Shown piece after piece: positions 35,425 through 48,971 of a stretch of DNA of 64,000 bases. Position 1 is the stretch's first letter. Each line of letters starts with the position of its first letter. This DNA comes from Micromonospora sp. WMMD1155 (GTDB taxonomy: Bacteria > Actinomycetota > Actinomycetes > Mycobacteriales > Micromonosporaceae): positions 7,254,501 through 7,318,500 of the forward strand of contig NZ_CP120742.1 in the NCBI RefSeq assembly GCF_029581275.1, written 5' to 3'. Under the pieces are notes generated by a model, which searched no databases, had not been told where the DNA came from, and saw nothing but the letters and a program-made list of their open reading frames with translations. Position numbers and translations under genes: made by a program.

Positions 35425-36279
35425 TCAGTCGCGCGGGCCAGTGACCGTGAGAGCTTGGATTGCGGCTGCAGCGTTATTGGCCGCGAGCCAGCCGGCGGGG
35501 TTGCCACAGTCGTGGTACTGGCCGGTAATGGGTTGGATCAGTACGTCGTGATCGCGTGCGAAGGCAGCGACGGCGTCGGTGGCCTGATACTCGCCGTTAG
35601 AGGCCGGGGTCAGCTTCTGGAAGTAGGCCACCGCGTCGGCGGGTAGCAGGGTGCGGCTGATGTTGATGTACGCGGTCGGTTCGCCGTAGCTGTCGGGCTT
35701 CTCCAAGAGCTCGTCGAGCAGGTGGTGGCCGGCTGCGGCGGTGCGTGGGTGGAGGATGCCGTATCGGTGGGCCTCGGCGCCCGGCACCGTAGCGGCGGCG
35801 AGCGCGGCCGGTGTACCAGCGGCGGCCCGGGCAGCCGCGAGGTCGGCGAGGTCGGATCCACCGTCGGCGCGGAGGAGAAGATCGTCCCCGGCGACAAGGA
35901 GGAAATCCTCGTTGCCGATGAACTCGGCGGCGATGATGGCAGGCAGCGCGGTGCCGTACCGGTCGTCGCGGGGCTGCTCGAGGAACGTGAAGTCGGCCTG
36001 GTGGTGTAGATCGGCGAGAGGCGCGTACTTGTCCTGCCAGCCTCGTGCGCTGAAGTATGCCTTGAGGTCGTGGTCCTCGCTGAGGTAATGGCGCACCTGG
36101 CGGCCGGCTTCGCCGGGGGCGGTCACGATCGCGATCTCGCGGGCACCGGCTGCGATGCAGTCGGCGACCGCGTAGGCCAGGACCGGATGGTTGAGGATCG
36201 GCAGCATGGACTTGTTGATCGTCTTGCCGATCGGAAAGAACCTGCTGCCCATGCCGGCAACAGCGATGACGGCCTTCAC
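35425..36279 (-). CDS. GalU-like sugar-1-phosphate nucleotidyltransferase
   Basis: About 284 aa from GTG 36279, preceded by AAAGGCGAG; a second in-frame GTG at 36306 is possible. The N-terminus shows the nucleotide-binding loop GMGSRFFPIGKTINKSMLPI, close to GalU (GxGTRxxPxTK..K.MLP). A central block VAGDDLLLRADGG matches the metal-binding Asp region. It is expected to make an NDP-sugar from NTP and sugar-1-phosphate. It lies downstream of the radical SAM/glycosyltransferase operon with a 167-base gap, on the same strand, so it probably supplies the activated sugar used there. GalU is also a housekeeping enzyme, so the link is inference. Confidence 0.85.
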   Translation of the reverse strand: MKAVIAVAGMGSRFFPIGKTINKSMLPILNHPVLAYAVADCIAAGAREIAIVTAPGEAGRQVRHYLSEDHDLKAYFSARGWQDKYAPLADLHHQADFTFLEQPRDDRYGTALPAIIAAEFIGNEDFLLVAGDDLLLRADGGSDLADLAAARAAAGTPAALAAATVPGAEAHRYGILHPRTAAAGHHLLDELLEKPDSYGEPTAYINISRTLLPADAVAYFQKLTPASNGEYQATDAVAAFARDHDVLIQPITGQYHDCGNPAGWLAANNAAAAIQALTVTGPRD

Positions 36280-36446
36280 TGACTCGCCTTTCGGTCGGAG
36301 GTGCACCGGCCGTCAGGGTGTTGCGACGGTGAGCCGGGACGCGTATGCCCAGTTTACGGTCTGTCGGTCCAGATTCATGGCACATGGAGCACGCGCAACG
36401 AGCGGGGACCGCCGGCGGTTCAGTGCCGGCGGTCCGCGGCATCGCA

Positions 36447-38576
36447 TTAACGCGGGGTGGACGGCATGAGCAGGGTGGTGGGAGGACGCTCGGCGGCGGC
36501 TGCGGCCAGGGAGCCAGCGTGACGGATCCGGTCCCACGTCGGCGTACGGCGAAGGTCGGGATCGAGACCATGGTGCAGTGCCTGCCGGTAGACGGCGTTC
36601 AGCATGGCGTCGTAGTCCCGCGGGGTTCCCCGCGGGCCCTCGACGTACTGGTGGAGAGCGGCGATCCCGACCTCGGCCACCGTGTAATTGCTTCGCCGAA
36701 TGGCGGCGAGCAGATCGCTGTCGAACGCCAGGCTCTGGTCCGTGACGAGAGGCAGTGCGGCGCGTAGGGCGGCGACAGGGAAGGCTTTGAAGCCGGCCTG
36801 CGGGTCGGTGGTGTCGAGTTGCAGGAGGTCCCGGACGGCTCGCTGGTAGAGCAGAGCGGTCGGGACCGGGCCAGCGGGCGGGTAGTAGCCGTGGGAGTCG
36901 GGTCGGCGGCGGGAGCCGACGACGACGCCAACGGTGGGCTGGTCGAGGGCAGCGATGTGGAGACCGAGTTGGTCGAGCGGGTAGGTCAGGTCAAGGTCGG
37001 TGTAGGCCAAAATGGTGCGACCGGCACCGGCGAGTTCGGCAAGACCCCACAGCACGGCGCCACCCTTGGCGCTGCCGTCGTCGGGGCGAGCCGTGATGGT
37101 CACGCGGATCTGCGGGTGATTGGTCTGGATCGTGTGGGCGGCTGCGCGGGCGGATGCGCAGTCGGTGCTCTCGTCGACCAGCAAGAGATCGGCGCGGGCG
37201 TCGGGGTGCGCTGCCAGGAGCCAGCCCAGTTGGGCGACCTTGGCAGCAAGCGCGTTGTCTCCGTTGAGGACGCGCGTTAGGCGTTGCGTCTCGGCGCGCA
37301 TCGGCACGACGATGCCGAGGTCGGCAGGAACGGCCCGGGCCAGGAGTGCGGCCTTGGACCGGGCGGCCTTGATGGCGGCGATCAGGCCTGTGACGTGCAG
37401 GTCCGCAGGGATGCTGTCGCGGCGGTTCTTGGCAAGGCCGTGCACGAAGGCGATGAGGAGTCGGTCGTCGTAGTGCGGGAGAGGGCTGTGTGTCTGGTGG
37501 CCGGTGAGGTGGTTCGCGACAATGTGCAGCAGCATGCGACCGGTCGGGTCGGCGGCCCAGCATTCGTCAGGGGTGGGTGGGACGTCAGCTCTCGGCCAGG
37601 TAGTACGGACGTGTTCGGCGAGCAGGTCGTAGCCGGTCACCAGGGCACGCTGGGTGTCGTCCCAGCGGGCACCGTCGTCGGTGGCTTCGGCTGCCTGCCA
37701 CGCCTCTTCCCAGCCGCTCTGGTGGGTGCGGGTGGTGCGGGCGGCAGTGACCTGCTGCCAGCGGCTCCGTACGGCGGGCCAAGCGCAGGGGAGGTCTCCG
37801 CCGGAGGCGAGAGTATCGGCAGCATCCTCGGTCATGGCGAGGGCCTGACTAGCCTGGGCGGGGGTGTCGGCAGCCGTTGTCATCGCGTCGAACCAAAGCT
37901 CGGCGGCCAGCGTCAGTCCGGCGGTGTGGTGGGCCAGGTCGCGGACCGTCTGCTCGCGCCGCGCGATCAGCCCGGCGCGTACCCGGTGGCGGCGGGCACG
38001 GGTAAGAGCGGCGGTGGCAGCCAGGTCGACCTGGGCTGTCGGAGCGTGGCTGGCGCGGGCATCGAGCAACGCGATCAGCCCCGTCTCGGCCGGATCGCTG
38101 AGCGTGTCTGCGTCCAGCAACGGGGCCAGAAGCTCGCCAAGGACGGCTGGATCCGCAGCTGCGGCGGACTCGCGGAAGCGTTCGCCGCTCAGATAGGTGT
38201 CGTCGACCGATGCGGGCTGGTGGGCCAGGGCGGCGACAGTACGAGCGAAGGTGTGACACGTGCCGGGCGCGGCGGCGTCGGGGAAGAGCCTGCCTCGTAG
38301 GGTGCCCGTTGCCCGTTTGGCGTCGGGCCGGTGCGCGGCCAGCAACGCGAGCGAGGTGAGTGGCAGGTCTGCGCGGTCGTCGAGTGCTCGGGCGACCCGG
38401 TCCGCGACTGGCATTGCGGTGATCGACAGCAGCGCGCGTACGGTGGCTGGCTCCGGGTCGGCGGTCGTGGCCAGGAGCACGGCGAGGTCGGCGTGCTCGG
38501 CGTCGAGGCGGTTCAGCAACGGGGACTTGGCCAGGGGCGCGAAAACCCGGACTGGGGTGGGCCGGGCGGCGGTCAT
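36447..38576 (-). CDS. Large protein with C-terminal GT2 glycosyltransferase domain
   Basis: 709 aa from ATG 38576, which overlaps the radical SAM stop (ATGA). An upstream extension in the same frame runs through that gene and is not protein-like. Residues about 417-660 are a GT2-type domain: LGIVVPMRAETQRL, LLVDESTD, KGGAVLWGL, TDLDLTYPLDQLGLH (DxD-type metal site) and VGVVVGSRR, resembling polyprenol-phosphate glycosyltransferases. The N-terminal about 410 residues are an all-helical Ala/Asp/Arg-rich domain of unknown type. No transmembrane segment is visible. The fusion of a helical domain to a dolichyl-phosphate-type GT is unusual. Confidence 0.78.
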   Translation of the reverse strand: MTAARPTPVRVFAPLAKSPLLNRLDAEHADLAVLLATTADPEPATVRALLSITAMPVADRVARALDDRADLPLTSLALLAAHRPDAKRATGTLRGRLFPDAAAPGTCHTFARTVAALAHQPASVDDTYLSGERFRESAAAADPAVLGELLAPLLDADTLSDPAETGLIALLDARASHAPTAQVDLAATAALTRARRHRVRAGLIARREQTVRDLAHHTAGLTLAAELWFDAMTTAADTPAQASQALAMTEDAADTLASGGDLPCAWPAVRSRWQQVTAARTTRTHQSGWEEAWQAAEATDDGARWDDTQRALVTGYDLLAEHVRTTWPRADVPPTPDECWAADPTGRMLLHIVANHLTGHQTHSPLPHYDDRLLIAFVHGLAKNRRDSIPADLHVTGLIAAIKAARSKAALLARAVPADLGIVVPMRAETQRLTRVLNGDNALAAKVAQLGWLLAAHPDARADLLLVDESTDCASARAAAHTIQTNHPQIRVTITARPDDGSAKGGAVLWGLAELAGAGRTILAYTDLDLTYPLDQLGLHIAALDQPTVGVVVGSRRRPDSHGYYPPAGPVPTALLYQRAVRDLLQLDTTDPQAGFKAFPVAALRAALPLVTDQSLAFDSDLLAAIRRSNYTVAEVGIAALHQYVEGPRGTPRDYDAMLNAVYRQALHHGLDPDLRRTPTWDRIRHAGSLAAAAAERPPTTLLMPSTPR

Positions 38577-40147
38577 CGCGTGAGCCTTGCGGCGACGAGT
38601 TCGGCGGCTTGCCGGGCGGTGTGGACCGGGAAGAGCAGGTTCTGGCGCAGGAATGTCCGCTCGAACTGGCTCAGTGGGGCGTGGATGACGGTGGTAGTAG
38701 AGGTGATATCCACGCGGGCATCGGGGCGGCCGATGCGAGCGAGCAATTGTCGTACCGTCTCCTCCTCCGGCGGCTGCGCTGCGGCGCAAATCTGGTGCTG
38801 CGCAGTGGGACAGCGCAGGCGGCAGTTGGTGGTCGGCAGGTCGTAGTGGCCGTTGTAGTCGGGGATGTAACTGCCGCGTTCCACCGCACGACCACACGAG
38901 GACCTCTTCAGTACGGCGGGACGGCAGTCCGCGGGCACATCGGCGTACACCTCAGCGAAAGCGGCCATGATCCGCGCCTCAGTGTCGGCAGTGAGCAGCT
39001 TTTTGCCTGGCTTGAACGTGCCCGTGGGCAGGGGCAGGCCGTAGCTCATGAAGCTGTGGACGTGGTCGTCGGCGAACTTGAGCCCACCGAGGACCACGGT
39101 GCGGGCACCGGCGTCTTTGAAGGTCTGCCAGACGTGACGCAGGTGCGCGTCAGTGGTGTTGAGTCCTTCGGCGATCGGTCGGTAGTACGCCAGCACGTTG
39201 ATCTTGTCGGATTGCAGGATGCGGCGCAGGAAACGCAGCCGGCGTTCGCGGTTGGGCGGCTCGATCGACTCGGGCATGGCGGCGTAGCAGACGTTGACGT
39301 CGAGATCGACGTGCACGAGGGACTCGAGACATTCGATCTGCTCATCGGACAGGGCGTACTTGGTGATGCACGAGACCCGGTTGGTCAGCCCGAGCTCGTC
39401 GAGTAGCTGCAGTGCGTGCCAGGTCCGGGGCCAGAGCTTCGGCAGGAACGCCTCGGACGTGGACATGTGCAGCCCGATGGGCGTGTGGTGCGGCGTGAAC
39501 CACGGGTGGGAGAGCAGCCGCGCGACGACGTCCTCCGGTTCGAGGAAACCGGTCGGCTCCCAGGAGCCGAGGTAGCCGTCGACGGTGTCGCCTTCGCGCC
39601 GGTAGCAGTACGCGCACATCAGGGGGCAGCCGATGCCGAAGTCAGCCGACATGCCGCCCTTCATTTGCGAGATCATGTAGCTGGTGTTCAACCCGTCGGG
39701 ACCGGCTGCTGCCTGGCTCGCCGCGATCTCCTCCACAGTGGCGATCGGCGCGAACCCGGCCGGCAGCACCGACTTGAACGCATGTGGAGCGTCCGGGGTG
39801 CCGACGACGCCGGGCCACGCGAAGGTGCAGCGCAGCGCGAAACCCAAGACGTCGCTTTGGTCGGCGTCGAGACCGTGGGTACGGGTGAGGGGCGTCACCG
39901 TGCGGGTGGGTAGTTCCTGCAGTGGGACCCGGCGGCCGGTCGGCTCATGCAGCAACCGCCCGGTGAGGACCTCGGTCACGGCGCGCTGCAGCGGCCCGTC
40001 GGCGAGCTGCCGCGCCGCGTCGACAACCGGATAGGGGTCGGCGATGTCGAGTATCGCTTGCAGGGCGCGGGCGACCTCTGAGCGGGCCTCGCTGCGAAGT
40101 AACGATGGAGGGTCGGTGACGGTGAGTGCGCTGGATAAGCTGCTCAC
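38573..40147 (-). CDS. Radical SAM enzyme with extra C-terminal cysteines
   Basis: 524 aa from GTG 40147, with GAGGAG five bases upstream overlapping the end of the previous gene; a longer in-frame start is rejected. The [4Fe-4S] motif GCPLMCAYCYRR (CxxxCxxC) is near 172-179. The surrounding text recalls spore photoproduct lyase-like proteins (SADFGIGC, RVSCITKYAL). Further cysteines near 417, 440-445 and 453 (SSCGRA, NCRLRC, HQICAA) may hold an auxiliary cluster. The substrate is unknown. ATGA-type coupling to the glycosyltransferase and position after the Ldh2 gene suggest a shared modification pathway. Confidence 0.85.
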   Translation of the reverse strand: MSSLSSALTVTDPPSLLRSEARSEVARALQAILDIADPYPVVDAARQLADGPLQRAVTEVLTGRLLHEPTGRRVPLQELPTRTVTPLTRTHGLDADQSDVLGFALRCTFAWPGVVGTPDAPHAFKSVLPAGFAPIATVEEIAASQAAAGPDGLNTSYMISQMKGGMSADFGIGCPLMCAYCYRREGDTVDGYLGSWEPTGFLEPEDVVARLLSHPWFTPHHTPIGLHMSTSEAFLPKLWPRTWHALQLLDELGLTNRVSCITKYALSDEQIECLESLVHVDLDVNVCYAAMPESIEPPNRERRLRFLRRILQSDKINVLAYYRPIAEGLNTTDAHLRHVWQTFKDAGARTVVLGGLKFADDHVHSFMSYGLPLPTGTFKPGKKLLTADTEARIMAAFAEVYADVPADCRPAVLKRSSCGRAVERGSYIPDYNGHYDLPTTNCRLRCPTAQHQICAAAQPPEEETVRQLLARIGRPDARVDITSTTTVIHAPLSQFERTFLRQNLLFPVHTARQAAELVAARLTR

Positions 40148-40149
40148 AG

Positions 40150-41199
40150 CTACTCCTCTGCTGATCCGATGATGGAGCGGGAAGGGTCGGGCTGGATCCA
40201 TCCGTGGGGAGCACGGACATGCGCGCGCCGGCCGGCGTCGATGAGCGCGGCGAGATCGTCGGGGTCGATGGGAATGCCGCTTTGGCGGGTCCGGTCGCGG
40301 TAAGACCAAGCGCGGTCCCCGGGCATCCGGGCGCCCTGATCGCGCACCTCGCGGGCAACGGTGGCAACTCCGGCGGCGAGCGAATCGCCGATGCCGAGGC
40401 GGCGAGGGTCGACAGCTACGACCAATAGGCCGCGACCGTCATCCCCGGCCGGCAACGGGGCGCTGCCCGTCAACGCGCCAACCAGCAGCTCTAAGACGAT
40501 CGCTAGGGCCTGGCCGCGCTCACCCGGTGGCAGCAAGACCGCAGCGAGTTTCGGGTCGTGGGCCGCGAGTCCATCTGCGCCGAGGGCACACCCGTCCGGC
40601 AACATCTGTCGATCGCGAGCCAGCTGCTGGACTCGGCCCCAGGAAGTCGCGGCTGCGGCCAGGTCCACCAGTACGGGACGTTGCGGGTCCGCGCCTGGGA
40701 CGGCAACCGCGATTGCGCTACTGCCGAGTACCGGCCTGCTGGTGCCGCCGTGCAGGGCCACGCTTTGCGCCGACGCCTGAGCGGCGGCCACACCCACCAG
40801 CCCGCGCCGGGCCAACTGCGCTGCAGGGATGCCGAGCGCGCCGACATGACCGGTCCGGCGAACGGTCACGGCGGCGACGCCGCAACGCCGAGCGCGCAGC
40901 ATTACCGCGGTGACCGCTAAGCGGGCCGCTACCGGTCCCGGGGCCAGGTCTGCATCCACCACCAGGATCGCCTCCCCGCCGGGTACGGTCCGGATCAAGG
41001 GACGCGGATTCAGGCGCCCGGTGCGGAGCTTGTCCAGGTAGTTAGGGGCCAATCGACTGCCGTGGCCGGGGATGCCGCGAAGGTCAGCCTCCACATGGGC
41101 GTCGGCCATCACCCTCGCCCCCGGTCGGTTCATTCCCGCTGCCTCGTACAGGCACTGCAGGAAACCGGCGAGCTGGCCCGGTGGCACCCGAGTCACCAT
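40150..41199 (-). CDS. Ldh2 / malate-lactate dehydrogenase-family oxidoreductase
   Basis: About 349 aa from ATG 41199 (GTG 41196 also possible, overlapping the upstream stop). The family is NAD(P)-dependent Ldh2/YlbC/MDG: LRGIPGHGSRLAPNYLDKL near the N-terminus holds the family His-Gly region, followed by AVTVRRTGHVGALGIPAAQL and VLVDLAAAATSWGRVQQLAR, which match conserved blocks. Members oxidise 2-hydroxy acids or ureidoglycolate, or reduce imines. The substrate here is unknown. Stop and next start are two bases apart, so it is co-translated with the radical SAM gene. Confidence 0.8.
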   Translation of the reverse strand: MVTRVPPGQLAGFLQCLYEAAGMNRPGARVMADAHVEADLRGIPGHGSRLAPNYLDKLRTGRLNPRPLIRTVPGGEAILVVDADLAPGPVAARLAVTAVMLRARRCGVAAVTVRRTGHVGALGIPAAQLARRGLVGVAAAQASAQSVALHGGTSRPVLGSSAIAVAVPGADPQRPVLVDLAAAATSWGRVQQLARDRQMLPDGCALGADGLAAHDPKLAAVLLPPGERGQALAIVLELLVGALTGSAPLPAGDDGRGLLVVAVDPRRLGIGDSLAAGVATVAREVRDQGARMPGDRAWSYRDRTRQSGIPIDPDDLAALIDAGRRAHVRAPHGWIQPDPSRSIIGSAEE

Positions 41200-42791
41200 G
41201 ACGCACCGCAGACCGGTAAGGCGCCGTGGGCGCGGCCGCTGCTGCACAAAATTCGGGCCAACGCCGCGGCAGAGGGCCGGTGCGGGCTGAACGCGGCCAC
41301 CAGCACGGGCGCGGGTGAACCGAGCAGGTCGTCCACGTCGCCGAGCGCAGCCTGGACAACTGTCCGTCCGAGTTCGGTCAGCCGGGTGGCCTCCCGGGCA
41401 GCCCCACTCAGACCCGCGGTGGTGGTGCGGGTGTCGTAGCCGTAGACGACTACCGGACCAGCTGTCGGCACCGGGGCACCGACAGGCACCTGCAAAATAC
41501 GGTGGTGCGGGGCGAGCAGCGCCGGCAGATAGTCCGGCGCGTGGCGGGCACTGTCAGCCCGACGCTGTCCGGCGTCGGGCACCCTCACCAGTGCCAGCAC
41601 CTTGCCGGGCGGCACGTCCAACGGAAGGAGACGGGTGCCGCGCACCACCGTTACCGACCGGTCGGCGACCCGGTCAGCCGCCCTCCAGGCTGATGCGTTC
41701 GCCTGCTGCCAGGTCGGCCGGGCGGAGCCGGGCGTCAAGCCGTACCGGCGGTGCAGAGCCTGCACACGGGCCACAGCCGCGCCGACCCGTTGACGGTCGA
41801 TCACGCCGTGCTCGACAGCGTCTATGAGCGCCTGCACGACCTCCGCCCGACGCCGAACTGCGGCGGCCCGCTCGGCCGGCTGCTTGCTCCGGCGGGAGAC
41901 CTCCGAGTCCAGCATCACGATGTCGACGCCGGCCGCCACCGCCGCGACCGCCGCCCGGGTCAGGCCACCGAGCGGCTGGTGCACCGCTCGGATCGACAGG
42001 TTCTCGCTCACCGTTACACCGTCGAAACCCAGCTCGTCGCGTAGCACGCCGAGCACGCGCGGCGATGCCAACGCGGGCCGATTGTCAAGGGCAAGGACGG
42101 TATGACTGCCAACCATCACGCATGCCACTTGCGCGTCAATCGCCGCACGGAACGGCTGCAACGCACCTGGGCCGAGCCGGTCAACGACCGGCGCGACGTG
42201 ATGGGGATCTGCGCCGACTCCGCCCAGACCCGGGAAATGCTTGGCGGTCGCCGCCACGCCAGCCGCCTGCAGTCCGCGTACGAAGGCCGCCGCCAGCAGC
42301 CCTACCTGCTCAGGATCCGACCCGAAAGCGCGGGTACCGACCGCAGTAAGCGCTGGCCACGACGCGGTGTCACAGACCGGAGCCAAATTCCACGTCAGCC
42401 CGACCGCCCGCAACTGCTCACCGATCGCCAGGCCCGCCGACTCGGCTAAGCCCTCGTCCCTCGCCGCACCGAGCGCCAGGTTCCCGGGCAACTGAGCGAC
42501 GCCCTGCCAGTCCAACGCGTTCAACCGACCACCCTCCTGATTGACGCTCAGCAGCAGCGGAAGGGAGCGTGCCGAGCTGCTGCTCGCCGACTGAGTGACC
42601 TGGCGCAACTGAGCTGGGCTGGTGACAATGCCCTTACTGATCCGGCCCGGCTCAGAAGCGGCCTCCTGGTGCGGCAATTGGACGGGACCGTCGAGACCTA
42701 GCGACCTCCGCCCAGGACGGACCAGCAGGTCGATCTGAGCGGCGAGGGCGGAATCGGTTCCGCCCGATCGCCCGGGTGCGCTGGGTGGCAT
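41193..42791 (-). CDS. GH3 (NagZ-like) glycoside hydrolase homologue with altered active-site residues
   Basis: 532 aa from ATG 42791, preceded by AAGGGAGAG. The beta-barrel GH3 blocks are recognisable: LPLLLSVNQEGGRL (usually DQEGG), WNLAPVCD, GVAATAKHFPGLGGVGADPHH (usual form KHFPGHGDT with a later DSH) and GVTVSENLSIRAV (usual form SDDL/TDAL with the nucleophile Asp). Here the nucleophile position is Glu and the second Asp is Asn, and the His of KHFPGH is Leu. The C-terminal about 200 residues form a second alpha/beta domain. It may bind rather than cleave sugars, or act on an unusual substrate. First gene of the five-gene minus-strand cluster. Confidence 0.78.
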   Translation of the reverse strand: MPPSAPGRSGGTDSALAAQIDLLVRPGRRSLGLDGPVQLPHQEAASEPGRISKGIVTSPAQLRQVTQSASSSSARSLPLLLSVNQEGGRLNALDWQGVAQLPGNLALGAARDEGLAESAGLAIGEQLRAVGLTWNLAPVCDTASWPALTAVGTRAFGSDPEQVGLLAAAFVRGLQAAGVAATAKHFPGLGGVGADPHHVAPVVDRLGPGALQPFRAAIDAQVACVMVGSHTVLALDNRPALASPRVLGVLRDELGFDGVTVSENLSIRAVHQPLGGLTRAAVAAVAAGVDIVMLDSEVSRRSKQPAERAAAVRRRAEVVQALIDAVEHGVIDRQRVGAAVARVQALHRRYGLTPGSARPTWQQANASAWRAADRVADRSVTVVRGTRLLPLDVPPGKVLALVRVPDAGQRRADSARHAPDYLPALLAPHHRILQVPVGAPVPTAGPVVVYGYDTRTTTAGLSGAAREATRLTELGRTVVQAALGDVDDLLGSPAPVLVAAFSPHRPSAAALARILCSSGRAHGALPVCGASW

Positions 42792-43072
42792 AGCGGCTCT
42801 CCCTTGCGGCTGGGGTCGGCAAGCGGGCGTGGCCCAGACGACCGGCACGGCGACCCAAGGTCCGGCGGTATCCATTCACAGAAGCTGAGGCGATGCTGGC
42901 GCCCGTCCCCGTCGCGGCCGATGCCAACTGGCGCAGCCCTCCAACGACCAGGGGTACGCCGGCTCCGCGCTCCACCGCATGTTCATGGGGCGTACGAACA
43001 GGGTGGAGCTGACGGGAGGTCAGCGCCCCGTTCTCAACGCTCCCCCTTGGAGTCGTAAGAGTGAATCCCCGG
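42792..43072. other. Divergent intergenic region between GH3-like and XRE regulator genes
   Basis: The 451-base gap from 42792 to 43242 carries no convincing gene. Its only clear element is the inverted repeat at 43073-43099, with a further half-site ATGCGGAT at 43113-43120. It must hold promoters for both directions, but no confident -35/-10 pair was found. Confidence 0.6.
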
Positions 43073-43099
43073 CATGCGGACGAAGCAGATGTCCGCATG
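43073..43099. promoter_or_regulatory. Operator-like inverted repeat, copy 1
   Basis: Perfect 9-base arms CATGCGGAC (43073-43081) and GTCCGCATG (43091-43099) with a 9-base spacer. It lies 144 bases upstream of the XRE regulator and about 280 upstream of the GH3-like gene. The same sequence with the same spacer length recurs at 46596-46621. Confidence 0.75.
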
Positions 43100-43242
43100 G
43101 CCCGCGCTGACAATGCGGATCACTCACCGACGATGTTTGGCGTGCTTGGTTGCGTCTTGCCGGACCGTGAGTGACCCTATGTGCGCGATGTCCATGCCGC
43201 TCGATTCCATTTGATACGGGAGTGGCCTGAGGAGGCGGTGTC

Positions 43243-44673
43243 ATGGGTCAGACCCCGCGGGCGCTGCAGCCGTCCTTATCCGAGCGCCACTTCTTCGGTG
43301 CCGAATTACGCCGGATGCGGGAGCGGGCCGACCTCTCCCAGGCGCGGCTGGGCGCCATGATCCGCTTCAGCGCTGATCTGGTTCAACGGGTCGAGACAGC
43401 GGACCGATTTCCCTCCCGGGAGTTCGTCGAGGCATGCGACAGAGCGCTGGCGGCCGACGGCGCCTTGATTCGGCTGCTGCCGCTGCTAGGGAAGAGGCCG
43501 AATAGCGAGGGCGAGCCATCGGTGTCCTCACCGGCCGGCGATGCAGGCGTCGCCAACCTGCTGCGTACCTACTCGGCGCGACCGTCGGGGACGTCTGAGA
43601 TGGTCATCCGGGTTCCGTTTCAACCAGGGGTCCTTGATCGTGCCGCCCTGGACTGGCTGAATGCCTCAGCCGGTCCCCTCCTCTCCGTGACCCGGCGGCC
43701 TGGCTCGCCTGATCAGGTCCGCGAAGAGGACATCTTCTCCGCTGAGACGGCCCTTGAAATGTTCCGGCAGTTGGACCACACGCACGGTGCTGGACGAGTC
43801 CACGCTCAGGTGCAGCGATACATCGAGGATGAGCTGAACCGGTTGCTGGCGAACCCTCCCGCCTCGGAAGCAATCGGTCGGCGCTTGTACACGTTGGCGG
43901 CTGGCTTCTTCGAGCTGTGTGGCTACCAGGCGGTCGATACCGGTGCCCATGGTCTCGCGCAGCGCCGCTACCTACGCGCGTTGCGGCTGACGCAGGCCGC
44001 CGACGACCGCCTCTACGGCAGCTACCTGCTGGCTGTAAACATCGGCCATCTCGCGCTGCATTGCGGTCACCCCGAGCCGGCCCTGCGGATGGCGCTTACG
44101 GCGGTGCGAGGCGGTGAGGGTCTGGCGACGCCAGCCGTCAAGGCAGGGCTACACGCCGTGGTGGCACGCTCGCACGCCCGACTCGGACGTGAGGGCGAGT
44201 GCCTCAGGCACCTCGACATCGCGGAGGGACATCTGGCCCGCAGCCGGCCTGAGGACGAGCCGACGTGGATTCGGTACTTCACGACGGCCTATCTGGCGGA
44301 CGAGATGGCCCATTGCTTCCATGACCTGGGCAGACCGCAGCAGACTCAGCAGCACCTGGCTGTCGCGCTTGCCGCGTTGAGTCCCACGCACGTCCGTCGT
44401 CTTGCCATCGACACCGCGCTACTGGCCTCGTCGTTGGCAGCCGCCGGCCGCATTGATGAAGCGTGCGTTGCTGGCCGAGAGGCGGTAGATCATGCAGCGA
44501 AGACCGCCTCGCACCGTTGCTTGCAGCGCGTCGTCGAGGTCCAAGCGGACCTTGAGCCCTACCGGTGCGAGCTAGAGGTTCGTGAGTTCGGCGAATACGT
44601 TCGCCATCAGCTGCCGCTCGCGGCAGTGCGACCGCCTCGACTGGCCGCGGCAGCTGCTATCGCTTCCCGGTAG
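43243..44673 (+). CDS. XRE-type helix-turn-helix regulator with TPR-like sensor domain
   Basis: 476 aa, ATG with GAGGAGG seven bases upstream. The N-terminal HTH (about 15-75: FFGAELRRMRERADLSQARL, DLVQRVETADRFPSREFVEA) is the Streptomyces-type XRE fold. The rest is a helical TPR-like repeat region (LYTLAAGFFELCGYQAVDTG, HLALHCGHPEPALRMALTAV, LARLGREGECLRHLDIAEGH-type repeats). Regulators of this layout often sense small molecules in secondary metabolism. The inverted repeat at 43073-43099 sits upstream and a second copy lies upstream of the permease gene, making it the prime candidate for the binding protein. The 3' end overlaps the convergent S9 peptidase gene by 67 bases. Confidence 0.85.
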   Translation: MGQTPRALQPSLSERHFFGAELRRMRERADLSQARLGAMIRFSADLVQRVETADRFPSREFVEACDRALAADGALIRLLPLLGKRPNSEGEPSVSSPAGDAGVANLLRTYSARPSGTSEMVIRVPFQPGVLDRAALDWLNASAGPLLSVTRRPGSPDQVREEDIFSAETALEMFRQLDHTHGAGRVHAQVQRYIEDELNRLLANPPASEAIGRRLYTLAAGFFELCGYQAVDTGAHGLAQRRYLRALRLTQAADDRLYGSYLLAVNIGHLALHCGHPEPALRMALTAVRGGEGLATPAVKAGLHAVVARSHARLGREGECLRHLDIAEGHLARSRPEDEPTWIRYFTTAYLADEMAHCFHDLGRPQQTQQHLAVALAALSPTHVRRLAIDTALLASSLAAAGRIDEACVAGREAVDHAAKTASHRCLQRVVEVQADLEPYRCELEVREFGEYVRHQLPLAAVRPPRLAAAAAIASR

Positions 44674-46437
44674 TGGGCCAGTTCCGCCTCCAGTGCCGCA
44701 CCCGCCCGCTTGGATGTTGCCACGTAGTGGCCGATGTCGGAGAGGAGTAGAAGCTCGTGAGGGATACCGCGAGCCTCCAGTTGATCGGCAAGCTCCCGTA
44801 CGTCCTCGGCCACGGCCACTTCATCGGCAGTGCCGTGAATGAACAGCACAGGTCGCTGAACGGCAGCGGCATCGACTCGCCCGGCGCCGCCGCGAAGCCG
44901 CATAGCGTGCGCACGCTGGAATCGGGGCACAGTCTTGGTCCACCGGTCAGGATCCACGATCGCTGAAACGGCGGTGGCAGCAGCGAATGGACCATCCTGC
45001 GCCACCGCGTGCAGCGCGGTGTATCCGCCGGCGCTGGCACCGCGGATGAAGACCTGTCCGGGAAAGGGCTTGTCCTGCCGTCAGGATCTGGTTCGCCACT
45101 GCTGCGCAGTCGTCGACGTCGTCCAGGCCCCACCGGCCATACAGGGATTCCCGGAAGGCTCGGCCGTACCCCGTGCTGCCGAGATAGTCCACGTCTACGA
45201 TAGCGAATCCACGACTGGTGAAGAACTGCGCCTGCCAGTCCAGGCGCAGCAGGCAGGATGCGGTTGGCCCAGGGTGTGCCCGAACGATCACGGGAGCCCG
45301 CCACGACGCCGGTGCGCCCGTCGGTGGATACACCAGCGCCAAGATCTCACGACCATCTTTGACGCGGACCCGCAGCTCTGTCGGCGTCGACACCTGCACC
45401 CGGGCAAGCCCGGCATGCTCCGATCGGGCAAGCACCTCCACCTGCGGGTCGTCATCGGCTAGGTCAACGAGCGCAATCTGGGGCGCCGCCGTTGGTGACG
45501 AACCGATCAACGCCACCGCCCTACCCAGCGCGGCCAGATAGGGCTTGATCGACGTGTACGGCAGATCCACCTGTCGGACGGCGCCGCAAGTGTCGATGAC
45601 AACGAGTCGGTGTCGCGGCCCCTCCTGCACTGCCACGACGATTCGCCCGTCGTCGAGGAAGTCGTATGACGCGTAACCCAGCTCCCACGGCTCTGCGGCG
45701 CACTCGCCGGCGATGGATGCCACCGCCTCGACCTTGTCTCCATTCCAGCGGAACAGATTCCACCAGCCGCTGCGGTCTGACATGAAGTACAACGCGCCAT
45801 CGGGTCCCCACCGAGGCTCGATCGCTGACTCGTCGGCACCGCCGGCGACCTTGACCGGTGCCTCAATGCGCCCATGTGATGAATAGGGCGCCACCCATAC
45901 CTCGCAGGCATCCCAAGGCATGTCGCGCTCGCTCCATGCACACCAGGCCAGGGAACTCGGACCTGGCCTTGGTGCGCTCAGGAAGCCTCTGCTCGCGACG
46001 AGGGTTCTCAGCTGTCGTGCACCCGTAAGTGAGAACGCGATCAACTCGTCGCCGTGGTCCGACTCTCGCACCGCCAGCAACTCGCCGTCGCCGAGCGTCA
46101 GATCTCCCAAGGACACCCGGCTGACCAGGTCGAACTCACCGCCATGACGACCCTCGTACAGGCCACCTTCGCCGACACACCACAACGACTCCCCGGCGAC
46201 GGCGAAAGACCCACCACCGTACGCGTGAACGGTGTTGATGACGTTGAATCCCCCCGGGCTGGCATCGAGCTTGCCCTCGCCGGCCCGCCAGCGCGTCAAC
46301 GTCGTGACCCCACCAGCGTCCGGACGGGTTTCCAACCAATAGAGCATGCCGTCAGAGACACGAAGCTGGTCGTAGCTGACAGACGCGCTGACAGCGTCTG
46401 CCAACGAGACGGCGGCGTCAGGATCCGCCACTTGCAC
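44607..46437 (-). pseudogene. S9-family prolyl oligopeptidase-like protein, frameshifted
   Basis: Start placed at GTG 46437, with GAGGAGG three bases upstream. Residues 1 to about 460 form a beta-propeller-like domain (RWGPDGALYFMSDRSGWWNL). The catalytic domain is split: the first frame is open to 44947, but from about 45055 the family text continues in another frame (QVFIRGASAGGYTALHAV with the nucleophile Ser, then PVLFIHGTADEV and DIGHYV) to the stop at 44607. One extra T in GCCCTTTCCCGG near 45055 accounts for it; deleting it restores LPGQVFIRG. All catalytic residues remain in the DNA. It is either a recent inactivating mutation or a sequencing error. Confidence 0.75.
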
Positions 46438-46595
46438 GGCCCTCCTCGAACAACTCTGGCATGTCCCCGCCCGTCGCCGGACCGGCCGGGGCGAGTGTCC
46501 CTCGGACATCGGCGACTCTACGCCGGGCTTACCTGCCCCGGCCGGACATCTCCTGCCGAGCTGCCCGCTGGCCGGTTCGCGCGCAGAGCCCTCTC
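46438..46595. other. Divergent intergenic region between S9 peptidase and APC permease
   Basis: The 324-base gap (46438-46761) has no supported gene. It contains the second operator-like inverted repeat at 46596-46621. An open frame through it joins the permease frame but has no protein-like content. Confidence 0.55.
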
Positions 46596-46621
46596 CATGC
46601 GGACAACTCCTCTGTCCGCAT
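46596..46621. promoter_or_regulatory. Operator-like inverted repeat, copy 2
   Basis: Arms ATGCGGAC (within 46596-46604) and GTCCGCAT (46614-46621) with a 9-base spacer, identical in arms and spacing to the copy at 43073-43099. It lies about 140 bases upstream of the permease start and about 160 upstream of the divergent S9 peptidase start. Confidence 0.75.
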
Positions 46622-46761
46622 TTCCGGTATCGACCCGGCCAACCATTCCGAGCGACCCTCTCGAGGTGGAAAGGCCCCGCAGGTCTGACCGGCAGCGACT
46701 GTCCCGCCCGAACAAATACGAGATGATCGGAATGGCTTCGATGCAACTGCAAGAGGAATTG

Positions 46762-48147
46762 ATGCGTTACGGCTACCGCCAGGAATTGAGCCGCCGTTTG
46801 CGTTTCCGGGACCTGCTTGCCTACGGCCTGGTGTACATGGTGCCGATCGCGCCGATGGCGATCTTCGGCAGCGTGTACGCCGGCTCCGGCGGGATGGTGG
46901 CACTCGCATACGCGGTCGGTGTCGTGGCGTTGGTGTTCACGGCGCTCTCGTACGCGCAGATGGTGAAGGCGTTCCCGATGTCGGGCAGCGTCTACAACTA
47001 CGCCGGGCGCGGCATCAGCCCGCCGGTCGGGTTCCTCGCCGGCTGGGTGATCCTCCTGGACTACGTCCTCGTACCGGGGCTGTTGTACCTGGTGGCGTCA
47101 GTGGCGATGCACGCCACGGTTCCGTCGGTGCCGGTCTGGTTGTGGCTGCTCGGCTTCGTCGCGGTCAACACGATCGTCAACTCGGTTGGCATCCGCATGA
47201 CGGCGGCCGTCACCCGGGTGATGCTCGTCGGCGAGCTGATCGTCTTGGCGGTCTTCCTAGCCGTCGCCGGCTGGGCCCTCGCGACCGGGAAGGGCCGGTT
47301 CAGCTGGGACGCGTTCTACAACTCCGACACGTTCACCTGGTCTCTGGTGGCGGGAGCGGTGTCGATCGCCGTGCTGTCCTTCCTCGGTTTCGACGGCATC
47401 TCGATGCTGGCCGAGGAAACCAAGGGCGGCTCCCGGCAGATCGGGCGCGCGATGGCCGCGGTCCTCGTACTGGCGGGTGTGCTGTTCGTCGCGCAGACGT
47501 GGCTGGCCGCGATGCTCGTCCCCCAACCGGGCAGGCTTCTCGTCGAGGGTGATCCGAACGGGACCGCCTTCTACGACGCCGCCTCCATGGCTGGCGGGGG
47601 GTGGCTGGCGACGGTGTGCGCGGTCGCGACGGCGATCGCGTGGGGGCTGCCGAACTCAATGGTCGCGCAGGTCGCCACGTCTCGGCTGCTGTACGCGATG
47701 GCCCGGGACCGGCAGCTGCCGGCATTTCTGGCGAAGGTGTCGATCCGGCGTAACGTGCCGATCAACGCCACGCTGCTCACCGGCGCGGTGTCCCTGGCGC
47801 TGGGCCTGTACATGGCTACCCGTGCGGATGGGATCACCCTGCTGTCGTCGCTGATCAACTTCGGGGCGATGGTCGCGTTCCTCGTCCTGCACGTCTCCGT
47901 CGTGGTGCACCACCTCATCCGGGAGCGCAGCGGTAACTGGTGGGCGCACCTGGTCATGCCCGCCGTCGGCTTCACCATCTTGGTGTGGGTGGTCGTCAAC
48001 GCCAACATCGCCGCCCAGCGCCTCGGCCTGGCCTGGCTCACCCTCGGGATGGTCGTTCTGGCCGGCCTGTACCTGTCCGGCCGCCGGCCTGCCCTCTCGG
48101 GGTTGGCGCCCGCGCAGCCGCAGGCACGTCACGTGGAGCGGGTGTGA
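46762..48147 (+). CDS. APC-family amino acid/amine permease
   Basis: 461 aa from ATG 46762, chosen for AAGAGGA four bases upstream; in-frame ATGs at 46723, 46732 and 46741 would add up to 13 residues. It opens with the actinobacterial APC pattern YGYRQELSRRLRFRDLLAYG, followed by about twelve hydrophobic segments. A glycine-rich first helix (PIAPMAIFGSVYAGSGG), a substrate-binding helix FLGFDGISMLAEETKGG and WGLPNSMVAQVATSRLLYAM are typical. It imports an amino acid, amine or similar cation by proton symport (family knowledge). The stop overlaps the formamidase start (GTGA), so it may supply the amide or amine substrate. Confidence 0.9.
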   Translation: MRYGYRQELSRRLRFRDLLAYGLVYMVPIAPMAIFGSVYAGSGGMVALAYAVGVVALVFTALSYAQMVKAFPMSGSVYNYAGRGISPPVGFLAGWVILLDYVLVPGLLYLVASVAMHATVPSVPVWLWLLGFVAVNTIVNSVGIRMTAAVTRVMLVGELIVLAVFLAVAGWALATGKGRFSWDAFYNSDTFTWSLVAGAVSIAVLSFLGFDGISMLAEETKGGSRQIGRAMAAVLVLAGVLFVAQTWLAAMLVPQPGRLLVEGDPNGTAFYDAASMAGGGWLATVCAVATAIAWGLPNSMVAQVATSRLLYAMARDRQLPAFLAKVSIRRNVPINATLLTGAVSLALGLYMATRADGITLLSSLINFGAMVAFLVLHVSVVVHHLIRERSGNWWAHLVMPAVGFTILVWVVVNANIAAQRLGLAWLTLGMVVLAGLYLSGRRPALSGLAPAQPQARHVERV

Positions 48148-48971
48148 CCGGCATGGACACGTTCACCTACCGGCCCGCCCGGGACGAGTTGGCGTACACC
48201 TTCGGCGGTCGGATGCCGGTGGCGCACGTGCGCGGCGGGGACGTGTTCACCGTCGTGACGGAGGACTGCTTCGGTGGTCTCGTGAGAGGGCCGGCGGACC
48301 TACCGTCGCAGGTGTGCCGCATGCCGTACCTCAATCCGGTGTCCGGGCCATTCTTCGTCGAGGACGCCGAGCCTGGCGACACCCTTGCCGTCCACCTCGC
48401 CGCTATCGTCCCCGCGCGGGACTGGGGTGTGTCCTCGACGTTCCCACATTTCGGGGCACTGACGTCCACCTCCCACACCGCCACCCTCCAGCCGCCGCTT
48501 CAGGAGCGGGTGTGGGTGTACGGCATCGACCGGCAGGCCGGGACCGTCCGGTTTCAGGCCACGCGCAGCGACCACATCGTGGACCTGCCACTGGACCCGA
48601 TGATCGGCACGATCGGTGTCGCCCCCGGTGCGTTCGAGGCCCGCTCCACACTCGTGCCCGACACCCACGGCGGGAACCTCGACACCCCGCACCTGCGCGC
48701 CGGCACCACCCTCTACCTCGGTGTGAACGTTCACGGGGCGATGCTGGCCCTCGGCGACGGGCACGCCCGCCAGGGCGAGGGCGAGGCCTGCGGCGTAGGC
48801 GTGGAGATCGCCACGACCACCACCCTCGCCATCGACGTCATCAAAGGCGTCACCACACTCCCGCCCCACCTCTCGGTGGGGCGTGCTCGAAAGCGGTTGG
48901 GAGGCGCCGCCCGCACGAGCGGGGACCGTGGAAGCACTGCTCCTTCCACACCGGGTTCGGTTTCGTGGTGA
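48144..48971 (+). pseudogene. Acetamidase/formamidase, C-terminally truncated
   Basis: 275 aa from GTG 48144, with GGAG upstream, overlapping the permease stop. Residues 1-235 are FmdA_AmdA: HVRGGDVFTVVTEDCFGG, GPFFVEDAEPGDTLAVHL, GTIGVAPG, DTHGGNLDTPHLRAGTTLYL and VNVHGAMLALGDGHARQGEGE are strong family blocks. After IDVIKGVTT the expected C-terminal segment (the family is normally about 300 aa or more) is missing and the text becomes Arg/Gly/Ser-rich. The break falls at a hairpin (48862-48883). Probably a truncated, non-functional enzyme, though the metal-binding core survives. Confidence 0.75.
48862..48883 (+). terminator. Hairpin at the truncation point of the formamidase gene
   Basis: Perfect 9-base arms CGCCCCACC and GGTGGGGCG with a 4-base loop TCTC, located where formamidase homology ends. 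It resembles an intrinsic terminator, although the reading frame runs through it. A second, weaker hairpin (GTGGAAG 48928-48934 / CTTCCAC 48943-48949) follows. Confidence 0.5.

What the first reader, a model, noticed from the sequence alone, without database searches (positions are those of the whole stretch)
43073..46621. Identical operator-like inverted repeat in two divergent promoter regions
ATGCGGAC-N9-GTCCGCAT occurs at 43073-43099 and 46596-46621 with identical arms and spacing, in front of the XRE regulator/GH3 cluster and in front of the permease/S9 peptidase. Two exact 16-base matches in such positions are very unlikely by chance. This links the sugar cluster with the permease-amidase genes and predicts the XRE/TPR protein as the binder.
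Basis: seen in the sequence. Interest (0 to 1): 0.75.

Follow-up and report, generated by a model that had tools for sequence, protein, structure and literature searches.

The report
Operator of a TPR-sensor gene regulator
The repeated palindrome is very probably the DNA docking site of a small family of gene regulators in Micromonospora and relatives; it marks the regulators' own genes, a peptidase gene and a transporter/amidase gene pair, but there is no sign that it ties them to the neighbouring sugar genes.

Summary
Confirmed: ATGCGGAC-N9-GTCCGCAT lies at 43074-43098 and 46597-46621 (none in 100 shuffles). The 7.34-Mb genome holds four exact copies, none of the reversed control, and none with one mismatch. 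Three lie upstream of the only three genes with one helix-turn-helix subtype (142-152 bits; next paralogue 59 bits); the fourth is the window's S9-peptidase/permease site. In 160 genomes of the genus, site and regulator XRE1 go together: 35 both, 2 site only, 1 regulator (fragment) only, 122 neither. Elsewhere in the family, 18 of 19 site-bearing genomes have their best such HTH within 10 kb of a site. The site follows the HTH even where the sensor domain differs. Best reading: autoregulatory operator of an NsdA-family XRE/TPR regulator, probably a ligand-released repressor, acting on itself, an S9 peptidase and an APC permease/FmdA amidase. The GH3 sugar genes were found in none of the 43 other genus stretches searched, so that link is unsupported. 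Binding, sign of control and ligand are inferred. The window's S9 reading frame is broken.

The parts
43074..43098 (.). Operator 1, ATGCGGAC-N9-GTCCGCAT, about 144 bp before the XRE1 start
   Evidence: exact site within 300 bp of 34 of 36 XRE1 N-termini
46597..46621 (.). Operator 2, same arms and spacing, between the S9 peptidase gene and the APC permease gene
43243..44673 (+). XRE1: HTH_31 domain (HTH helices at residues 14-83 of the model) plus TPR-like helical C-terminus; NsdA-family model above cut-off; proposed binder
44607..46437 (-). S9 (prolyl oligopeptidase family) gene, convergent with XRE1; frame broken near 45.06 kb, so seen as two ORFs (44607-45005 and 44947-46752)
   Evidence: GTG start at 46437 read by eye
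46723..48147 (+). APC-type amino acid permease, proposed target (start codon uncertain)
48153..48971 (+). FmdA/AmdA-type amidase directly after the permease, proposed target
46625..46633 (+). CGGTATCGA beside operator 2 on the permease side; TATCGA is kept in the 25 permease-side leaders printed
   Evidence: counted by eye
46515..46520 (-). TAGAGT, possible -10 of the S9 gene; TA(G/C)AGT is kept in the 17 S9 leaders printed
   Evidence: counted by eye
43147..43181 (+). TGGTTGCG...CCCTATG, promoter-like box kept in most XRE1 leaders (not in L020, L063, L065, L073, L090)
   Evidence: by eye

Best explanation
The palindrome is the operator of one subtype of HTH_31 (XRE/Cro-type) DNA-binding domain, carried here by XRE1 and, at 119-125 kb of the same genome, by a second XRE1 copy and by XRE2. 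A dimer places one HTH on each 8-bp arm (17-18 bp from arm to arm). It controls the regulator gene itself, a convergent S9 peptidase gene and a divergent APC permease-FmdA amidase pair. The TPR-like C-terminus would be the ligand sensor; most likely the free regulator represses, and a peptide- or amide-like ligand handled by those enzymes releases it. Shown by computation: site identity, rarity, co-occurrence with the HTH, gene context. Inferred: physical binding, repression, ligand.
For: Four exact sites in the genome; three HTHs of the subtype at 142-152 bits, each with an exact site upstream, and no exact site in the loci of the 17 weaker paralogues. Genus: 35 genomes with both, 2 site only, 1 XRE1 fragment only, 122 neither; Fisher p 1e-31, which overstates it because species share ancestry. 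34 of 36 XRE1 N-termini have the site. Of 73 genus sites examined, 66 lie within 500 bp of an XRE1, XRE2, S9 or APC start, and one more (L023) about 180 bp before an S9 match. Family: 56 of 354 genomes have the site, reversed control 0 in the table; best HTH within 10 kb of a site in 18 of 19 genomes outside the genus. Regulators with a different sensor domain but this HTH carry the same arms: L120, L207. For repression: in 16 of 16 XRE2 leaders TTGTCC of the right arm stands 17 bp before a TANNNT; in L120, L148 and L207 the site ends about 11-23 bp before the start codon.
Against: No binding or expression data. At XRE1 and S9 the promoter-like boxes lie some 40-95 bp away from the site, which fits repression less well. 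Two XRE1 genes (L065, L073) lack the exact site; 6 of 73 genus sites have none of these genes at hand; G657 has a site but no cognate HTH near it. The XRE2 leaders were found through their sites, so are not an independent test. Chosen by HTH alone across the class, only 2 of 29 loci read have the exact arms. A sigma-70-type consensus scan found no promoter-like site in 42700-46800.
Confidence: 0.82

Rival explanations
1. The same proteins bind the same sites but act as activators or dual regulators; operators 1 and 2 are then upstream activating sites for XRE1 and S9.
For: At XRE1 and S9 the conserved promoter-like boxes lie roughly 40-95 bp from the site, a distance at which activators often bind (recalled).
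Against: At XRE2 the operator covers the likely -35 in 16 of 16 leaders; in L120, L148 and L207 it sits just before the start codon.
Confidence: 0.25
2. Another regulator binds the site, and the XRE genes are only its targets.
For: The site also serves S9 and APC genes; no binding test exists; XRE1-lacking G085 and G018 have a site.
Against: The site tracks this HTH subtype through genera and through a change of sensor domain; the two odd genomes have unlike spacers and none of these genes at the site.
Confidence: 0.06
3. The site links the sugar (GH3) cluster to the permease-amidase genes as one physiological regulon.
For: Operator 1 lies 199 bp before the GH3 ORF as well as before XRE1.
Against: No GH3-cluster ORF in the 43 other genus stretches, while the site before XRE1 stays.
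Confidence: 0.08
4. Chance, or a DNA/RNA structural element such as a terminator or repeat.
For: Perfect inverted repeats with short spacers.
Against: Four copies in 7.3 Mb, against none for the reversed pattern; no terminator-like site in 42700-46800; same arms kept with 9-, 10- and 21-nt spacers. No Rfam search was run.
Confidence: 0.02

Closest known systems
NsdA-family TPR-like regulators (NCBIfam NF053720; NsdA and NsdB of Streptomyces)
   Same: XRE1 scores 303.8 bits and a relative's XRE2 (L024) 105.8 against a cut-off of 75; the TPR part is shared at 38-41% by proteins of the f33 genomes.
   Different: Far below the NsdA (109 against 830) and NsdB (85.9 against 700) cut-offs. The f33 matches begin at about residue 108-158, so that search showed no common HTH. 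The parts read of the NsdAsr paper (PMC12243394) name targets but no palindrome.
Autoregulated XRE-family repressors with palindromic operators (PMC12565409: 223 predicted motif clusters; abstract and passages seen)
   Same: XRE HTH, palindrome before the regulator's own gene.
   Different: 8-bp arms 17-18 bp apart (or 29 bp with N21), where the passage seen gives a spacer of around 12-14 bp; its Table S1 could not be read, so this motif may already be listed there.
RRNPP peptide receptors (Rap, NprR, PlcR, AimR)
   Different: APPBP2 (21.6) and MalT domain III (19.2) score as high or higher, so the ligand type is open. No peptide gene was identified; XRE1 and S9 overlap end to end.

Membership tests
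NsdA family TPR-like regulatory protein (NF053720) | Score above the curated family cut-off (75 bits) | tested here: met
   XRE1 303.8 bits; XRE2 of L024 105.8 bits
NsdA proper (NF050130) or NsdB (NF050135) | Score above the equivalog cut-offs (830, 700 bits) | tested here: not met
   XRE1 109 and 85.9 bits
XRE-type autoregulator with palindromic operator | XRE/HTH_31 domain | tested here: met
   PF13560, 56 bits against a cut-off of 27
XRE-type autoregulator with palindromic operator | Palindrome upstream of the regulator's own gene, kept in relatives | tested here: met
   34 of 36 XRE1 N-termini
XRE-type autoregulator with palindromic operator | Purified protein binds the palindrome | not testable with these tools
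   needs EMSA or footprint
RRNPP peptide receptors | HTH plus TPR superhelix | tested here: inconclusive
   model has both, but unrelated TPR proteins score as high as Rap, NprR and AimR
RRNPP peptide receptors | Pro-peptide gene next to the receptor gene | not tested
   no systematic small-ORF search; only the XRE1 leaders were looked at by eye, with no frame-conserved small ORF seen
RRNPP peptide receptors | Binds a secreted and re-imported peptide | not testable with these tools
   needs ligand-binding work

The most novel reading that the evidence does not exclude
The arms form an operator code of one HTH_31 subtype that has been combined with different sensor domains across actinobacterial families, keeps both arms on one DNA face with 9/10- or 21-nt spacers, and drifts symmetrically with its HTH (L287, L300); and XRE1 is an RRNPP-like peptide receptor of actinobacteria whose regulon takes up and degrades its own signal (APC permease, S9 peptidase, amidase).
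Probability: 0.15. Interest if true: 0.8.

Novelty: new member of a known kind. Interest (0 to 1): 0.5.

Why it matters
An NsdA-family regulator lowers antibiotic production in a streptomycete (abstract of PMC12243394), yet the searches made here listed no paper that defines an operator for this family. A 16-base site with only four copies in the genome, three cognate HTHs and clear neighbouring targets makes binder, sign of control and ligand directly testable, and lets regulons of related regulators be proposed from sequence.

Tried and rejected
Sugar-cluster link: no match of GH3, Ldh_2, radical-SAM, glycosyltransferase or nucleotidyltransferase ORFs at E <= 1e-15 in the 43 other genus stretches; rejected as a conserved target, not excluded for this strain.

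An operator used across the class: with any 2-30 nt spacer the arms occur in 37 of 394 genomes, at scattered spacings and with reversed-control matches too. Of 29 loci taken from that scan (L122-L150) one, L148 (N21), has the HTH (79 bits); G411 (N10) is a second. So the class-wide matches are mostly background.

Class-wide search with full-length XRE1: outside the own genome only TPR-domain matches, all in family f33, so it did not extend the operator. A small ORF in the XRE1 leader: frame not kept among the leaders, by eye. Promoter/terminator scan of 42700-46800: nothing found. Half-site strings in papers: 255 papers hold one; the 30 listed titles are not about bacterial operators, the other 225 were not seen. 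No Rfam search was run. Profile A2 was built from HTHs of known site-bearing genes, so lean towards that subtype. Scans for imperfect arms were limited: to spacers of 8-11 nt and 4 mismatches, to 2 mismatches; one search placed the start of L287 wrongly, which one search put right.

Full report
Observation. Both palindromes are real, with identical arms and spacing. No copy appeared in 100 shuffles of the window. The window is 7254501-7318500 of a single-contig genome of 7344427 bases, which has four exact copies with 7-11 nt spacers and none of the reversed control. With a 9-nt spacer and up to three mismatches there are 60 places against 37 for the control: three exact, none with one mismatch, the rest with two or three. 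Records of related loci bear Micromonospora and Salinispora titles, so the genus is taken to be Micromonospora.

The other two genomic sites. They are at 119109 and 124751 in a second locus: a second XRE1 (80% identical), an S9 gene, XRE2 (its first 82 residues 50% identical to XRE1), an APC permease and an FmdA amidase. One site precedes that XRE1, the other lies between XRE2 and the permease. The window has a compact form: S9 and permease share one site, and no XRE2 match was found in the 19-kb stretch of the window that was searched.

Who binds. A profile of the HTH domain (A2, seven sequences) finds 20 matches in this genome: three at 142-152 bits, the next at 59 bits. The three are XRE1, its copy and XRE2, and each has an exact site upstream. 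In the loci of the other 17 the best approach to the site (8-11 nt spacer) has three mismatches.

Genus. XRE1 (E <= 1e-60) is in 36 of 160 genomes; the site with an 8-11 nt spacer is in 37 of 160, with one reversed-control match, in G014. By comparing the two lists: both 35, site only 2 (G018, G085), XRE1 only 1 (G168, a fragment), neither 122; Fisher p 1e-31, too small since species share ancestry. My addition of the table gives 74 sites, 73 of them in stretches fetched. Of the 73, 66 lie within 500 bp of an estimated XRE1, XRE2, S9 or APC start; L023 lies about 180 bp before an S9 match. The remaining six are in L026, L061, L062, L087 and at second places of L065 and L073. One search gave 38 XRE1 matches; two are fragments without an N-terminus, and 34 of the other 36 have the exact site within 300 bp; L065 and L073 do not. 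Some of the 36 are shortened ORFs (L067, L071, L088). The 16 XRE2 N-termini all have the site but were fetched because of it or of XRE1; one more XRE2 (L069) lacks its N-terminus and has no site.

Site anatomy. XRE1 sites have a 9-nt spacer in 32 of 34, XRE2 sites a 10-nt spacer in 16 of 16, S9 sites 10 nt in 12 and 9 nt in 2 of the 14 counted. The regulator-side half is usually extended to GTTGTCCGCAT. In 16 of 16 XRE2 leaders TTGTCC of that half stands 17 bp before a TANNNT. On the permease side TATCGA follows the site in the 25 leaders printed; S9 leaders keep TA(G/C)AGT some 45-95 bp away (17 of 17), and most XRE1 leaders keep TGGTTGCG...CCCTATG some 40-65 bp away (by eye). Sigma-70 consensus scanning found nothing.

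Family. The site (9-10 nt) occurs in 56 of 354 genomes, with reversed-control counts of 0 in the table; 19 of the 56 are outside the genus and hold 28 sites by my addition. In these 19 the HTH profile gives 1-4 matches at E <= 1e-16, and the best lies within 10 kb of a site in 18 (exception G657; by hand). By chance this would be about 1% or less per genome. The convergent XRE1-S9 pair, at 34-51% identity, is in 12 of the 23 stretches L185-L207 (partial or cut XRE1 in two), and in 11 of the 12 a site lies before XRE1 or S9. L188 and L203 also have permease and amidase.

The site follows the HTH. A Nonomuraea antri regulator (L120) matches XRE1 only over the first 82 residues (54%) and has ATGCGGAC-N21-GTCCGCAT just before its start (seen by eye, shown). 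An NsdA-like regulator of G281 (L148) also has N21, and L207 (G411) has N10. L120 and L207 match no NCBIfam model at 1e-5, and L188 matches only a HipB-type HTH model below its cut-off. N21 is about one DNA turn longer than N10. In a sample chosen by HTH alone (39 matches in 32 of 394 genomes, three of them the own genome) I read 29 of the other 36. Two have exact arms (L275, the gene of L148, and L276, that of L207). L300 has a symmetric variant, AAGCGGACA/TGTCCGCTT. By eye, L287 has CGATGAGTACAG/CTGTACTCATCG and L288 TTCAGAC/GTCTGAA, both with the 10-nt core spacing. The other 24 show no site within two mismatches; L308 and L313 have unrelated perfect repeats. So exact arms are the exception outside the family.

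Mechanism. Most likely a dimer on the palindrome represses its own gene and the APC-FmdA and S9 genes until a ligand releases it. Binding is strongly implied; repression is inferred from site position at XRE2, L120, L148 and L207; the ligand is a guess. The window's S9 frame is broken near 45.06 kb, ahead of the nucleophile region, whereas each of the other 37 genus stretches with S9 matches in one piece, two of them only in part because S9 runs off the stretch. The copy at 119 kb is among those in one piece.

Against known work. The searches of an open-access library listed no paper on this operator. Of PMC12243394 I saw passages and section 10: targets, no palindrome. Of PMC12565409 I saw abstract, outline and passages: 223 predicted XRE motif clusters in a table I could not read, so prior listing is not excluded. 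Of PMC10075063 I saw the start of the abstract and passages: RRNPP systems described for Firmicutes.

Verdict. A real and well-kept operator of a known kind of regulator, with clear targets and without the sugar link.

Noticed in passing
window 44607-46437: S9 peptidase gene with a broken reading frame near 45.06 kb; the other 37 genus stretches with S9 match in one piece. Real pseudogene or assembly error is open.
   Followed up: partly
window 43113-43119: A further half-site-like ATGCGGA 15 bp after operator 1; L076 and L085 have an extra GTTGTCCGCAT half-site after theirs.
   Followed up: no
window 35425-42875, - strand: Run of nucleotidyltransferase-like, glycosyltransferase-like, radical-SAM, Ldh_2 and GH3 ORFs beside XRE1, not found in relatives' XRE1 loci.
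   Followed up: partly
L185 site 8881, L186 site 9485, L187 site 9051: In three genomes of one genus the site lies by a gene beginning MIRSQD; in L187 it is 74 bp before an AdoMet synthetase, a possible further target.
   Followed up: partly
L065 site 5433, L073 site 13652: A second site about 0.8 kb beyond XRE2; in L073 92 bp before a NUDIX gene. In the same two genomes XRE1 lacks the exact site.
   Followed up: partly
flank left of the sites, e.g. window 43061-43073: XRE1 sites are mostly preceded by TGAATGCC and S9 and XRE2 sites by TCGATA(C/G) a few bases before the left arm; meaning unknown.
   Followed up: no
L194 (G708) 5554 and 10422: Two different regulators of this HTH type in one stretch, each with an exact site upstream.
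   Followed up: no
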